Positions 31,114 through 62,646 of a stretch of DNA of 64,000 nt are shown here, piece after piece. The stretch is from Xanthomonas cassavae CFBP 4642 (GTDB lineage Bacteria > Pseudomonadota > Gammaproteobacteria > Xanthomonadales > Xanthomonadaceae). Position 1 is the stretch's first letter. Each line of letters starts with the position of its first letter. A model generated the notes under the pieces. The model was given only the letters and a program-made list of their open reading frames with translations. It ran no database searches and was not told the DNA's origin. A program made the translations under genes and the position numbers. Location of the stretch: NCBI RefSeq assembly GCF_000454545.1, contig NZ_CM002139.1, positions 250,833-314,832 on the forward strand, given 5' to 3'.

Positions 31114-31419
31114 CTATAACCTGCCGGCCAAACGCACCATCAGATCCATGCGCTCATGCAGGATCGCCACGATCAGTGCCGGAGCGCGCTCACGCGGCAG
31201 GCAGAAGATGTGATGGTGCATGCAATGCGACATCCGCAATGCGGGGTACAGCGCGCTCAGATCCTTGAAAGTGCATTCCCCTGCTGCGAGACGGGCGATG
31301 CCCTGTTCCAGGTCTGCTATGTACCGGCGAACCTGCTCCTGGCCCCAGCGTGCCGAGGTGTAGCGGATGATCCCGCGCAGATCGGCTTCGGCTGCGTCGG
31401 TAAGGACGTAGCCGTGCAT
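31114..31419 (-). CDS. ParE/RelE-family toxin
   Basis: A 101-aa ParE-like toxin: YVLTDAAEADLRGIIRYTSA at the N-terminus and IFCLPRERAPALIVAILHER at the C-terminus are typical. The ATG shares one base with the antitoxin stop (TGATG). ParE toxins poison DNA gyrase; RelE members cleave mRNA, and sequence alone does not decide which applies. Confidence 0.9.
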   Translation of the reverse strand: MHGYVLTDAAEADLRGIIRYTSARWGQEQVRRYIADLEQGIARLAAGECTFKDLSALYPALRMSHCMHHHIFCLPRERAPALIVAILHERMDLMVRLAGRL

Positions 31420-31673
31420 CAACCGCGACTGCCCTCGGCCAATTCTTCATCCAGGATGGTGCTGATGCTCTTGGTAGAAACCTCGCCGGCAAGGCCTTCC
31501 TCGACACGTGCCCCAAGCAGGCTTTTCAACTCCTGCCACGCTTGATCGGCGTTTACGTCGCCCGGAAAGAGACGTTCGAGTGCGTACTGCTTGATGGTCT
31601 TGCCCTGCAGGGCCGCCAGCGCCTTGAGGCTCTGATGCTGCTGATCGCTTAGGTCGATGGTCAAACGGCTCAT
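31419..31673 (-). CDS. ParD-like antitoxin
   Basis: An 84-aa antitoxin upstream of and coupled to the ParE-like toxin. The N-terminus MSRLTIDLSDQQHQSLKALA looks like a ribbon-helix-helix DNA-binding strand and helix. The C-terminal half (STKSISTILDEELAEGSRG) would wrap the toxin. GGAG lies upstream of the ATG. A palindrome at 31711-31726 is a likely operator. Confidence 0.85.
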   Translation of the reverse strand: MSRLTIDLSDQQHQSLKALAALQGKTIKQYALERLFPGDVNADQAWQELKSLLGARVEEGLAGEVSTKSISTILDEELAEGSRG

Positions 31674-31710
31674 AAGCAGCTCCGAAGTCCGCACAAACCC
31701 ACATTAGCAC

Positions 31711-40338: not shown

Positions 40339-40590
40339 ATGCGCGTCCCAATTGACCACGCATCCGACATCGGTGCCTATGTCCGCGCAGTGCGCAAGGC
40401 ACAAGGCCTACGTCAGGACGACCTGGCAGCGCTGGCCGGCACCAGTCATGTGGTGCTTGGCAATGTCGAGCGCGGCAAGGACACCGTGCAACTGGGCCGG
40501 GTGTTCGAAGTGCTGCGGCAATTAGGCATCCAGGTCCAGCTGGACCTGCCGGTGGAGTTGCCGGCTCCGGTAGCCAGGCACGTCGAATGA
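40339..40590 (+). CDS. hipB: HipB-type XRE antitoxin/repressor
   Basis: An 83-aa XRE protein with helix-turn-helix QGLRQDDLAALAGTSHVVLG and a short C-terminal tail LELPAPVARHVE-like (VELPAPVARHVE). It should bind the CTAAAG palindromes upstream. It overlaps hipA by ATGA. Its partner is damaged, so it may persist only as a repressor. Confidence 0.9.
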   Translation: MRVPIDHASDIGAYVRAVRKAQGLRQDDLAALAGTSHVVLGNVERGKDTVQLGRVFEVLRQLGIQVQLDLPVELPAPVARHVE

Positions 40591-41800
40591 ACACCGTCGA
40601 TGCGCCACGCACCCTGGAACTGTGGCTGGAAGAGCGCCGCATCGGTGAGCTGCGGGAGCAGGGCAACCTGTGGGCGCTCGCGTACGACCCAGCGTGGCAA
40701 ATGGACGGCTTCGATCTGTCTCCCGCGTTGCCACCTCGCACGGGTCAGATCATTGATGGCGGTAGTCAGCGCCCGGTGCAGTGGTTCTTCGACAACCTGC
40801 TCCCCGAAGAGGGCGGACGCCGGTTGATCGCCAGCGATGCCGGCATCGATGCGGCCGATGCCTTCGGCCTGCTGCAGCGGTTCGGCCCGGAGTCGGCCGG
40901 CGCGTTGACCGTGCTGCGGCCAGGCCAGCAACTGCCGCCGCCGGCGCTGCAGCCGCTGAGCGATGTCGCGCTTTCTGAGCGTATTCGCGCCTTGCCCCGG
41001 CAACCGCTGACCCATGACGCACCCAAGCGCATGTCGTTGGCAGGCGCCCAGCACAAGCTGGCAGTGGTGCTGGAGGCGGGGCAGTTGTGGGAGCCGGTGG
41101 GCACGGCTGCGTCCACCCATATCCTCAAACCCGACCACGAACATGTGGACGACTACCCGCACAGCGCGGTCAATGAATGGTTTTGCATGCAGCTGGCCGC
41201 TGCCTGCGGACTGCCGGTGCCACAGGTGGCCGTGCGCCGCGTGCCGGAACCGGTGTATCTGTCCGCCGGTTCGACCGCATCGGCGATGGCCTGCAGGCAC
41301 AGCGCCGTTATGCGCTGGACGGTTGCCAACTGCTGTCCCTGGATCGTGTTTACAACTACCAACAAGCCACCATCAACACCTTGCGCGCGCTCGAACGCAT
41401 CAGCCGCATGCCTGCGGCCAACCTGAGCTTCCTGCGCGGCGCCAATGGCTGGGAACTAGCCCCGCATTACGACCTGCTCAGCACCAGCGTGTACACGGCT
41501 CCGGATTGGGGCTTGGACGAGCTGGTTTTTCCGATGGGTACCGCTCGCCGTTATGCCGCCATCGGTCGCGATGCTGTGGCGGCGTTCGGCCACTCCATCG
41601 GCGTACCAGCGAAACTGACATTGCGGCATCTGGACGAACTGACGACCGCGATCAGGCGAGAGTCGCATGCCGTATTGCAGAGCTGCGAACAAGGCGCTAC
41701 GCATGCAGTCGATCCTGGCGAAGCGCGCCTGCTACGGCAGATTGTGTTCGGGCCTGTGGTGGATGCATTGAGTGCAGTGTCGGCATCGGCTTTACATTAG
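40587..41800 (+). pseudogene. hipA: hipA-type kinase toxin, frameshifted and missing its catalytic loop
   Basis: The first frame (from 40587) carries the HipA N-terminal domain and the ATP-binding MSLAGAQHKLAVVLEAGQLW and THILKPDHEHVDDYPHSAVN. Near 41261 one base is missing: the text reads CTGTCCGCCGG where CTGGTCCGCCGG would continue VYLVRRFDRIGDGLQAQRRY. In the second frame, ERISRMPAANLSFL joins two regions that in HipA are separated by the catalytic loop (GNxDAHxKN), so roughly 20-30 residues including the catalytic Asp are deleted. The C-terminal part (APHYDLLST onward) is present. Two independent lesions make it inactive. Confidence 0.85.
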
Positions 41801-41885: not shown

Positions 41886-42135
41886 TCACTTCAGCCCCAT
41901 CGGCTTGATCACTGCCTTGTCGCGCAGCTTGTCGAAGGCATCGGCGTCCTGTGCTGCCAGGCCAGCGTCACGGCCGATGCCCATCAGGAAGGAGCCGAGT
42001 CTGCCCCGGTCTGCCGGCTCGGCTGCCGACTCAAGGATTGCGCGGATCTCTGCCTGGGTGCTGCGGCCATGCAGTGGCGCACGCGCGGACCACGCGATGC
42101 ACCTTGGGGATATTGCGGACGATAAAAGAAGGCAT
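41886..42135 (-). pseudogene. FitA/VapB-like antitoxin, frameshifted
   Basis: From 42135 one frame reads MPSFIVRNIPKVHRVVRAC; a second continues PLHGRSTQAEIRAILESAAE and ends VIKPMGLK at 41886. Together they are an Arc-type ribbon-helix-helix antitoxin of the FitA class, broken by a one-base loss near 42080. AGGAGGGTGGA directly before the ATG is an excellent ribosome binding site. No PIN-domain toxin follows, so both toxin and frame are lost. Confidence 0.75.
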
Positions 42136-42143
42136 TCCACCCT

Positions 42144-42182
42144 CCTGGTTCAACCAGGTTGCTTGCACTTCAGAAATGCAAG
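42144..42182. promoter_or_regulatory. Two palindromic operators upstream of the FitA-like relic
   Basis: CCTGGTTCAACCAGG (42144-42158) is a perfect palindrome around one base, and CTTGCA-N9-TGCAAG (42162-42182) is a second. They lie 9 and 27 bases before the antitoxin start, where RHH antitoxins bind. Sites survive although the antitoxin is frameshifted. Confidence 0.65.
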
Positions 42183-42238
42183 CACTCAGGTAACCTCGAT
42201 GCCCGGCATCAGCAGACCAGGGCCAACCGGTCCTTGAC

Positions 42239-43351
42239 TCACCGATACGGCCCCGGCCCACGCCAGACCGGTTCGCCCTGGCGGTAGACCTCCATCATGT
42301 TGATGACCTCGCGGGCGTCGCCGATGCTCTTCAGTTCCGGCGAGTCCGGCGGCAGCAGGCGGCATTTGCTGGAGCCGCGTTTGAGTGCGACCTCCAGCGG
42401 GCAGACCATGCGTTGCTGGGTGCCGGGCAGGATGATGGCGATCTCCTGCATGCCCTGTTCCTTCCACACCCGCAACTGGGTTTCGCTGCGCACATCGTAA
42501 TACACCTGGTAGCCGCCGATATCCATGCTGGGCTGGGCGTTGCGGCGGTCGTTGCGGCGGCCCTGGCTGATGGTGGGCGTGTACGAAGTGCCGTCTTCGG
42601 CGGCGTCGGCCGGTTCGTCGAGCATGCCCGGTGGACGCCCGGTCCAGGTTTCCGGGCGGCGCTGCGGCGGCGATGACGGTTCGGCCGGTGGTTGCGGCGG
42701 AGTGGGGCGGTGCACGGGCCGGGCCGGGCGCTGTTCGGTCAGTCCGCCACTGCGCGTGCTGCCTTGCGGCGGCACCGGGTTCCTGGCGTTCCGCACCAGC
42801 GTGGATTGCACTGGCGAGGCCGCGGGTGGCGGCTGTACCGGTGCAGGCGTGGGCGAGGGCGGGGTGGGCGTTGGCGACGGGGTGAGTTGCTGGGGTTGGT
42901 CGGTGTCGCCGACAAAGTCCACCTTGGTGCGGCCACCGCTGGCCGAGCCCTGCGGCGGCGTCGCCGTGGGCGTGGAGGCCGACAGCAGGATCAGCAGCAT
43001 CAGCACATGCAGCAGCGCGCTGATCAGCGCGGCGATCCACGGCTCGAGGCGTTCGATCAGCGGTTCGCTGCGTGGCAGCCAGTCGCTGGGGTCCAGCTGG
43101 ACATGCAGCAGTTGCAGCGTGTCGTCGCGCACACGGTAGACCAGGACGTACGGGGTCTGTTTGACCACCCATTCGCGGGTGCCCGGCACCCGGCCGGCGC
43201 GGCCACGGCCGGGTTGTTCGGCCAGCGTGCGGGTGGCGTGCAACACCTGCCGTGCCATCGCCGCCGCCGCAACCGGGTTGAGCGCGTGATAGTGATCCTG
43301 GGCGTGGGCGAGCTGCTTGGCGGCCGGGACGGTCCACTCACGCCGCAACAT
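42239..43351 (-). CDS. ParE-like toxin domain fused to a membrane helix, Pro-rich linker and periplasmic domain
   Basis: One uninterrupted 370-aa frame. Residues 1-92 are a complete ParE/RelE fold: REWTVPAAKQLAHAQDHYHA, GRAGRVPGTREWVVKQTPYV, LVYRVRDDTLQLLHVQLDP. At about 98-128 a membrane helix follows (LEPWIAALISALLHVLMLLI). A long Pro/Thr/Ser/Arg-rich linker (about 130-265) leads to a conserved-looking end with IGGYQVYYDVRSETQLRVWK, RMVCPLEVALKRGSSKCRLL and VWRGPGPYR. The ATG overlaps the upstream antitoxin by 14 bases, as in normal parDE pairs. The fusion could be natural, or a lost stop between two genes; either way the frame is open. I do not know the C-terminal family. Confidence 0.75.
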   Translation of the reverse strand: MLRREWTVPAAKQLAHAQDHYHALNPVAAAAMARQVLHATRTLAEQPGRGRAGRVPGTREWVVKQTPYVLVYRVRDDTLQLLHVQLDPSDWLPRSEPLIERLEPWIAALISALLHVLMLLILLSASTPTATPPQGSASGGRTKVDFVGDTDQPQQLTPSPTPTPPSPTPAPVQPPPAASPVQSTLVRNARNPVPPQGSTRSGGLTEQRPARPVHRPTPPQPPAEPSSPPQRRPETWTGRPPGMLDEPADAAEDGTSYTPTISQGRRNDRRNAQPSMDIGGYQVYYDVRSETQLRVWKEQGMQEIAIILPGTQQRMVCPLEVALKRGSSKCRLLPPDSPELKSIGDAREVINMMEVYRQGEPVWRGPGPYR

Positions 43352-43544
43352 CAACGCCCCATCCGGCGAACAGTGCGGTGAGCTGCGCCGGCGCGACGAA
43401 GGCGCCCTGGTCGGCGGCAGCGATGCCTTCGAGCACGGCCGCCTGGAAGCTGGCCTCGGTCACCGCATGCAGCACGTCCTGCCACCCTGCGGTGTCGGGC
43501 AGCGTGTCGATCAGCGTATGGGCGTGATGCTTGATGGCAGACAT
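43338..43544 (-). CDS. ParD-like antitoxin partner of the fused toxin
   Basis: A 68-aa protein starting MSAIKHHAHTLIDTLPDTAG. It has the size and position of the antitoxin of a ParE-type toxin and resembles Phd/ParD-type short antitoxins seen next to ParE (KHHAHTLIDTLPDTAGWQDV, then EGIAAADQGAFVAPAQLTAL). It overlaps the toxin start. Family not decided. Confidence 0.7.
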   Translation of the reverse strand: MSAIKHHAHTLIDTLPDTAGWQDVLHAVTEASFQAAVLEGIAAADQGAFVAPAQLTALFAGWGVDVAA

Positions 43545-43793
43545 GGCACTGCGGTGGGGGAATACTGCCGACAAGTCTACCGCCGCAGCCCGGATTGGCG
43601 TGTGGCAACAGCCGGCGCGCAGGCGTGGCATTCACCGGCGAGGGCGGCCGCAGCGCACGGCGCCGGCGCTGCAGCCGCCTGCCAGCGGCCACGCCGGCGC
43701 ACGGGCGGCAACAGAAAGTGACACTTGGCACCTTGTCGGCGGCGTGGCCGGGTTTCATCCTGCAGCCGTCACTTCACCCACAAAGGATTGGTC

Positions 43794-62101: not shown

Positions 62102-62359
62102 ATGCGCACCGAACTTGTCACCACGCTCAAGCGTCAGGCCACCGAACTCCTTGCAGCTGCCGAGCGCGACAAGGAGCCGATCCTGATCACACAGCACGGT
62201 TTGCCCAGTGCCTATCTGGTGGATGTCGCCAGCTACGAGCGCATGCAGCAGCGCATGGCGCTCCTCGAAGGAATCGCCCGTGGAGAAATGGCAGTAGCGG
62301 AAGGCCGCACTCTGAGCCATGAACAGGCACAGCAACGCATGGCGCGATGGCTGAAATAA
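62102..62359 (+). CDS. Phd/YefM-family antitoxin
   Basis: An 85-aa antitoxin: VTTLKRQATELLAAAERDKE at the N-terminus is the DNA-binding region, and PILITQHGLPSAYLVDVASY the core. It overlaps the toxin gene by 13 bases. A palindrome stands directly upstream. Confidence 0.9.
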   Translation: MRTELVTTLKRQATELLAAAERDKEPILITQHGLPSAYLVDVASYERMQQRMALLEGIARGEMAVAEGRTLSHEQAQQRMARWLK

Positions 62360-62646
62360 TCTGGTCGGCGCCGGCATTGGCTGACTTGGACGCGATTGCC
62401 GACTACATCGCAATCGACAACGCGCCCGCTGCAGCGGCACTGGTGAAACGGGTGTTCGCGCACGTTGAGCAATTGATCAAGCACCCGGACAGCGGAAGCC
62501 GGCCACAGGAACTCAAGCGCTCGCGCTATCGCCAGATTGTCGAACCACCTTGCCGCATCATCTACCGCGTGGATGGGCAGCGCATCGTGGTGGTGCACGT
62601 CATGCGGTCCGAGCGCGCGCTTCGCAGGAACCGTCTTTCACGCTGA
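62347..62646 (+). CDS. ParE/RelE-family toxin
   Basis: A 99-aa toxin: IIWSAPALADLDAIADYIAI, then VEQLIKHPDSGSRPQELKRS, ending IVVVHVMRSERALRR. Typical ParE/RelE fold without apparent damage. Paired with the overlapping Phd-type antitoxin. The cellular target (gyrase or mRNA) cannot be told from sequence. Confidence 0.92.
   Translation: MAEIIWSAPALADLDAIADYIAIDNAPAAAALVKRVFAHVEQLIKHPDSGSRPQELKRSRYRQIVEPPCRIIYRVDGQRIVVVHVMRSERALRRNRLSR

What the first reader, a model, noticed from the sequence alone, without database searches (positions are those of the whole stretch)
42239..43544. ParE toxin domain fused to a membrane anchor and a periplasmic domain
A full ParE-like fold continues in frame into a membrane helix, a long Pro-rich linker and a conserved-looking extracytoplasmic domain, with a normal overlapping antitoxin upstream. 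ParE toxins are usually solitary soluble proteins of about 100 aa. A membrane-tethered version, or a toxin domain used as the cytoplasmic part of an envelope protein, would be a new architecture.
Basis: partly seen in the sequence, partly recalled or inferred. Interest (0 to 1): 0.7.

Follow-up and report, generated by a model that had tools for sequence, protein, structure and literature searches.

The report
ParE toxin fused to TolA-like protein
In Xanthomonas bacteria a self-poisoning protein domain with its own antidote gene has been joined, apparently once, to a membrane protein that resembles the cell-envelope force transducers TolA and TonB; the joined form was described in 2025, the resemblance to force transducers seems to be a new lead.

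Summary
ORF 42239-43351(-), 370 aa, is one frame: ParE domain, membrane helix, Pro-rich linker, folded C-terminal domain. A 68-aa antitoxin gene overlaps its start by 14 nt. All 35 genus genomes searched match, 34 in one open frame. The architecture is not new: Gerdes 2025 (PMC11980606) named it ToxM/ToxR, from Xanthomonas perforans. What this work adds: (1) 26 of 149 sampled family genomes encode the membrane protein without ParE, with no antitoxin found at 27 such locus rows; fused forms are one clade, so one fusion of a parDE module to an older gene is the best reading. (2) The helix carries the complete SHLS motif of TolA/TonB in 35 of 35 distinct fused locus proteins, and a family profile finds TolA in the PDB: the older protein looks like a proton-motive-force transducer. 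No relative was found for its C-terminal domain. (3) ParE is under purifying selection, yet 38 of 39 fused forms lack a C-terminal His kept by 22 of 23 close solitary relatives. Whether the tethered domain still poisons the cell is open.

The parts
42239..43351 (-). Fusion gene (ToxM-like): ParE domain, TolA/TonB-like membrane helix, Pro-rich linker, C-terminal domain; 370 aa
   Evidence: One open frame; match in 35 of 35 genus genomes, 34 uninterrupted; AF2 model
43076..43351 (-). ParE domain, residues 1-92
42980..43066 (-). Membrane helix, residues 96-124
   Evidence: AF2 helix; highest 19-residue hydropathy 2.66, window starting at residue 106
42974..43021 (-). Complete SHLS motif S111-X3-H115-X6-L122-X3-S126
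   Evidence: 35 of 35 distinct fused locus proteins; 0.097% of 100,000 shuffles of the window helix
42536..42973 (-). Pro-rich linker, residues 127-272, predicted disordered
   Evidence: Blocks of residues 131-270: pLDDT 37-64
42239..42535 (-). C-terminal domain, residues 273-370, Cys 317 and Cys 330 invariant; probably periplasmic
   Evidence: AF2; invariant Cys columns in the 47-row alignment; no convincing PDB match
43338..43544 (-). Antitoxin gene (ToxR-like), 68 aa, 14-nt overlap with the fusion
   Evidence: 65 of 65 fused locus rows (duplicate genomes included) have a 68-aa antitoxin, an ATG start of the fusion and a 14-nt overlap
43572..43579 (-). TAGACTTG box 27 nt upstream of the antitoxin ATG, possible -10 region
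   Evidence: Present in 12 of the 12 aligned loci printed, 2 of them outside Xanthomonas

Best explanation
This is a ToxM/ToxR-type toxin-antitoxin pair in which a ParE domain forms the cytoplasmic head of a TolA/TonB-like force transducer. Supported here by sequence: a parDE module became joined in frame to the start of an older Xanthomonadaceae gene, most likely once; the antitoxin gene, the overlap, the ParE fold and the membrane protein have been kept since. Inferred: the antitoxin is made first and binds the ParE head, helped by the overlapping genes (about 0.9); the helix docks through its SHLS motif on a TolQ- or ExbB-type motor, so the protein is driven by the proton-motive force while its C-terminal domain engages an unknown envelope partner (about 0.65); engagement, or loss of the antitoxin, changes the state of the ParE head, making it a read-out of envelope state on the cytoplasmic side (about 0.4). 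Whether the head can still inhibit gyrase is undecided (about 0.5).
For: Fusion in 35 of 35 genus genomes and in 2 further genera of a 149-genome family sample. ParE-less orthologues in 26 of those 149 genomes (my count from the match table); antitoxin found at 0 of 27 ParE-less locus rows with an intact start region against 65 of 65 fused rows. A gene downstream is shared with ParE-less Xanthomonas relatives. Fused forms one clade in the envelope tree, 100/98, 21 of 51 rows, and in the ParE tree, 93/90, 17 of 35 rows. Median pairwise dN/dS, 29 Xanthomonas sequences: ParE 0.17, C-domain 0.24, antitoxin 0.34. SHLS motif complete in 35 of 35 distinct fused locus proteins; profile finds two TolA chains, E 3.3e-5 and 6.8e-5. 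Motif definition and its contacts with TolQ/ExbB: PMC12215075, passages seen. Motor proteins exist in the genome: 5 MotA_ExbB matches.
Against: No relative was found for the C-terminal domain, so the third part of a TolA/TonB protein is unsupported (model mean pLDDT 70). The TolA profile match is modest (27 bits, bias 9) and covers helix plus low-complexity linker; NCBIfam TolA stays below its cut-off in the 3 proteins that match it and is not matched by P0085 or the paralogue. The nearest MotA_ExbB gene lies about 91 kb away. Of 25 distinct ParE-less locus proteins only 22 have S-X3-H and 8 the full motif; S-X3-H alone arises in 9.2% of shuffles; 2 of 13 full-length fused database proteins have Thr for Ser. 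In the two other genera none of the window's close neighbours was found within 5 kb, apart from weak matches to one gene that lies 7 kb away in the window, so transfer between genera is not excluded. No experiment supports antitoxin binding, motor docking or toxicity.
Confidence: 0.6

Rival explanations
1. Domesticated, non-toxic head: the ParE domain lost toxicity after fusion and now only serves as a docking site for the small partner protein at the membrane. (Compatible with the transducer part of the best explanation.)
For: 38 of 39 fused sequences lack the C-terminal His found in 22 of 23 solitary-length relatives (16 of 17, 6 of 6). The free tail is replaced by a short join to the helix; in M. 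tuberculosis ParE2 removing the last 10 residues abolishes toxicity (PMC4906023, passages seen).
Against: The antitoxin is present in 65 of 65 fused rows and ParE is as constrained as the rest. The His is not universal in the wider family: by eye 4 of 7 other ParE-family ORFs read in this genome have it, 3 do not, 1 more was not resolved.
Confidence: 0.35
2. Membrane-posted defence toxin (the proposal of Gerdes 2025): entry of phage or plasmid DNA through the inner membrane frees the ParE head.
For: Published proposal for ToxM/ToxR (PMC11980606 section 28); membrane position.
Against: Present in 35 of 35 genus genomes rather than patchy; no PADLOC match for either protein; no phage record matches, and no plasmid record covers 80% of the protein.
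Confidence: 0.15
3. Selfish capture: the pair is kept because it makes loss of the locus costly, with no new function for the joined protein.
For: The gene is kept in 35 of 35 genus genomes, with an antitoxin in 65 of 65 fused rows read.
Against: Addiction would work without a fusion; helix and C-domain are under purifying selection too.
Confidence: 0.15
4. Two working products: a separate ParE and a separate transducer arise by internal start or cleavage.
For: ParE-less orthologues exist as stand-alone genes in relatives.
Against: No in-frame start codon between residues 75 and 115 is present in more than 30% of 31 sequences; the next frequent ones (116, 118) lie inside the helix. Cleavage is untested.
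Confidence: 0.07

Closest known systems
ToxM/ToxR (Gerdes 2025, mBio, PMC11980606)
   Same: N-terminal BECR/ParE-fold domain, one membrane helix, disordered stretch, structured C-terminal domain, upstream antitoxin, Xanthomonas example
   Different: Its main text does not contain TonB, TolA, force or proton motive, and the sections read do not mention ParE-less orthologues. ToxR is called an RHH protein, whereas no RHH family matched our antitoxin. Its supplementary tables could not be opened, so that the gene is the same is inferred from layout and genus
TolA/TonB force transducers
   Same: Membrane helix with SHLS motif, extended linker, folded C-terminal domain
   Different: Cytoplasmic ParE head; no motor gene nearby; kinship of the C-terminal domain not shown
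vWA-type force transducers (PMC12204202, passages seen)
   Same: SHLS helix, disordered linker and a C-terminal domain other than that of TolA/TonB
   Different: vWA fold and motor genes alongside; no toxin head
ParDE type II toxin-antitoxin (e.g. P. aeruginosa 6xrw, PaaA2-ParE2 5cw7)
   Same: ParE fold, upstream overlapping antitoxin
   Different: Solitary relatives end about where the fused protein continues; this antitoxin has no library model

Membership tests
ToxM/ToxR (Gerdes 2025) | N-terminal BECR-fold toxin domain, central membrane helix, disordered region capped by structured C-domain | tested here: met
ToxM/ToxR (Gerdes 2025) | Upstream antitoxin gene, co-transcribed | tested here: inconclusive
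   Gene present with 14-nt overlap; co-transcription not measured
ToxM/ToxR (Gerdes 2025) | Antitoxin with RHH or HTH DNA-binding domain | tested here: inconclusive
   No RHH/HTH family for 5 of 5 antitoxins at E up to 5 in Pfam or NCBIfam (one weak Clr5 match, E 0.12, to a relative). Profile search of the PDB: nothing significant, though a RelB antitoxin chain (9g12) is listed at E 0.93. No structure of the antitoxin was predicted
ParE toxin (PF05016) | Family profile over curated cut-off and ParE fold | tested here: met
ParE toxin (PF05016) | Gyrase inhibition / toxicity neutralised by the antitoxin | not testable with these tools
   Needs expression
TolA/TonB force transducer | SHLS motif in an N-terminal membrane helix | tested here: met
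   Complete in the window protein and 35 of 35 distinct fused locus proteins; 8 of 25 ParE-less ones complete, 22 of 25 with S-X3-H; definition from PMC12215075
TolA/TonB force transducer | Extended periplasmic linker | tested here: met
   about 146 residues, Pro-rich, predicted disordered; its periplasmic side is inferred
TolA/TonB force transducer | C-terminal TonB_C/TolA domain | tested here: inconclusive
   Sequence libraries; fold; kinship neither shown nor excluded
TolA/TonB force transducer | Interaction with TolQR/ExbBD motor | not testable with these tools
   5 MotA_ExbB matches in the genome, nearest about 91 kb away

The most novel reading that the evidence does not exclude
A toxin-antitoxin pair wired to a proton-motive-force motor: the ParE head, held by its antitoxin, is released or hidden according to whether the TolA/TonB-like transducer is engaged in the envelope, so that envelope state or loss of membrane energy is passed directly to DNA gyrase and growth.
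Probability: 0.25. Interest if true: 0.9.

Novelty: new variant of a known kind. Interest (0 to 1): 0.6.

Why it matters
If right, a toxin-antitoxin module became part of the conserved gene set of a genus by fusion to a motor-driven envelope protein, giving a testable link between envelope energetics and a growth-arrest domain. It also recasts the published ToxM: its C-terminal part belongs to an older envelope protein, not to the toxin. And it shows a naming error: ParE-less orthologues carry the name 'RelE/ParE family toxin' in public records.

Full report
WHAT IS THERE. On the minus strand, 43338-43544 encodes a 68-aa protein and 42239-43351 a 370-aa protein whose ATG lies within the first gene (14-nt overlap). 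Pfam finds ParE_toxin at residues 6-85 of the 371-aa reading. AlphaFold2, with 76 aligned sequences, gives a well-scored ParE fold, one helix at 96-124, a disordered Pro-rich stretch and a folded C-terminal domain. The window is Xanthomonas: the closest named loci are X. codiaei (96%) and X. floridensis (95%).

THE FUSION IS REAL AND CONSERVED. All 35 genus genomes searched match; 34 have residues 1 or 2 to 371 in one open frame without a stop; one (G027, by contig position the X. phaseoli of L087) is split between two frames in the linker. In a sample of 149 family genomes, 54 match at all. Only 13 candidates per genome were scored in most of these genomes, so the counts are lower bounds. In all 65 fused locus rows read (named and unnamed copies of the same genomes included; 35 distinct proteins) the antitoxin is 68 aa, the fusion starts with ATG and the overlap is 14 nt. 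At 27 ParE-less locus rows with an intact start region (duplicates included) no antitoxin was detected, while the same search found antitoxins of 35-42% identity at three solitary ParE loci. I dropped contig-end fragments (L054, L084, L091, L092) from these counts; L084 is a second, partial copy in one genome (G030).

ORIGIN. ParE-less orthologues mostly have an ATG of their own some 8-20 codons before the point where similarity to the fusion begins (last in-frame ATG, my choice of start). Solitary relatives of the ParE domain end shortly after the position of the conserved Trp, where the fusion runs on into the stretch before the helix. A tree of the envelope part (51 rows) puts 21 fused rows in one clade, 100/98; a tree of the ParE part (35 rows) puts 17 fused rows in one clade, 93/90, with solitary P0123, P0125 and P0126 nearest. 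In one search rooting on two divergent family members places the fused clade among ParE-less rows, though the fork that holds them is an open one. A gene lying downstream is shared with ParE-less Xanthomonas relatives. In the two other genera no close neighbour of the window's gene was found within 5 kb, apart from weak matches to one gene that lies 7 kb away in the window. The simplest history is one in-frame fusion of a parDE module to an older gene, then mostly vertical descent within Xanthomonas; losses, and transfer between genera, are not excluded.

THE OLDER PROTEIN LOOKS LIKE A TolA/TonB-TYPE FORCE TRANSDUCER. Its helix carries S111-X3-H115-X6-L122-X3-S126, which is the SHLS motif as defined in PMC12215075 (passages seen); there the Ser and His contact the TolQ/ExbB motor. 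All 35 distinct fused locus proteins have the complete motif; shuffling the window's helix gives it in 0.097% of 100,000 trials, and S-X3-H alone in 9.2%. The 35 are close relatives, so they are not independent. Among 25 distinct ParE-less locus proteins 22 have S-X3-H and 8 the full motif; of 13 full-length fused proteins in the database list 11 and 10; of the other 107 listed proteins 104 and 62, searched over the first 170 residues, so a few may be off-target (the list holds the best 120 of 426 hits). A profile of the family finds two TolA chains in the PDB with E 3.3e-5 and 6.8e-5, over helix and linker; the score carries a composition bias of about 9 bits. NCBIfam TolA is matched below its cut-off by P0018 (2.5e-5), P0040 (0.0018) and the window protein (0.01), not by P0085 or the paralogue. 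The C-terminal domain has two invariant Cys in 47 rows; what it is related to is open. Transducers with an unrelated C-terminal domain are known (PMC12204202, passages). The genome has 5 MotA_ExbB and 9 TonB_C matches elsewhere, the nearest motor gene about 91 kb away. In a 151-genome sample of the order, all 16 genomes with any match to a ParE-less member belong to the own family.

IS THE TOXIN HEAD STILL A TOXIN? For: ParE dN/dS is 0.17 (median of pairs, 29 Xanthomonas sequences; L080, L083 and the frame-broken L087 left out), not weaker constraint than the C-domain (0.24); linker 0.20, helix region 0.15, antitoxin 0.34, its overlap included. And the antitoxin is present in 65 of 65 rows. 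Against: the His at column 86 is kept by 22 of 23 solitary-length relatives among the 29 hits (the other 6 are pieces of fused proteins) and lost in 38 of 39 fused ones (Leu 29, Val 7, gap 2), P0012 keeping it; and the free C-terminal tail, needed for toxicity in M. tuberculosis ParE2 (PMC4906023, passages), is absent. The His is present in the aligned PDB toxins 5cw7 and 3kxe, but among the 8 other ParE-family matches of this genome it is present in 4 of the 7 that I could read and absent in 3 (by eye). So the hint is fair, not strong.

WHAT IS KNOWN. Gerdes 2025 (PMC11980606) named this architecture ToxM, with ToxR as antitoxin, from X. perforans, modelled the complex, and suggested defence against DNA crossing the membrane (sections 27-29 read). 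The words TonB, TolA, force and proton motive do not occur in its main text. Its supplementary tables could not be opened, so that our gene is the same gene is inferred from layout and genus. A 2016 survey of Xanthomonas toxin-antitoxin systems (PMC4861877, passages) does not contain the word transmembrane in its main text.

VERDICT. The new points are the ParE-less relatives, the single fusion and the force-transducer helix. The mechanism is inferred throughout.

Noticed in passing
40339-41800 (+): hipB-like ORF followed by a hipA that appears split between two reading frames (40587-41426, which holds only the start of HipA_C; and 41177-41800, not scanned).
   Followed up: no
41886-42261 (-): FitA-like RHH antitoxin remnant: the match (29.3 bits, cut-off 27) covers only the second half of the model, and the first half seems to lie in another frame (42031-42261). 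No toxin gene was identified beside it.
   Followed up: partly
62102-62646 (+) and 31114-31694 (-): Two further, solitary ParE-family toxins with upstream antitoxin-like ORFs; 9 ParE-family matches in the genome in all.
   Followed up: partly
43716-43726: Palindrome AAGTGACACTT in a conserved block upstream of the antitoxin, exact in 6 of the 10 Xanthomonas loci printed and in neither of the two outside the genus.
   Followed up: no
L128:5497-7350 (-), L129:5736-7502 (+), L130:5349-7196 (+): Protein of about 600 aa with an S-X3-H helix, long disordered-looking stretch and a weakly similar C-terminal domain, next to an NfuA-like gene (name recalled, not tested).
   Followed up: partly
P0018, P0033, P0058 and others: Orthologues with no ParE domain listed are named 'RelE/ParE family toxin' in public records: probably a name carried over from the fused form.
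   Followed up: partly
L087 (X. phaseoli pv. phaseoli): Natural copy whose frame is broken in the linker, leaving ParE plus helix; described only.
   Followed up: partly
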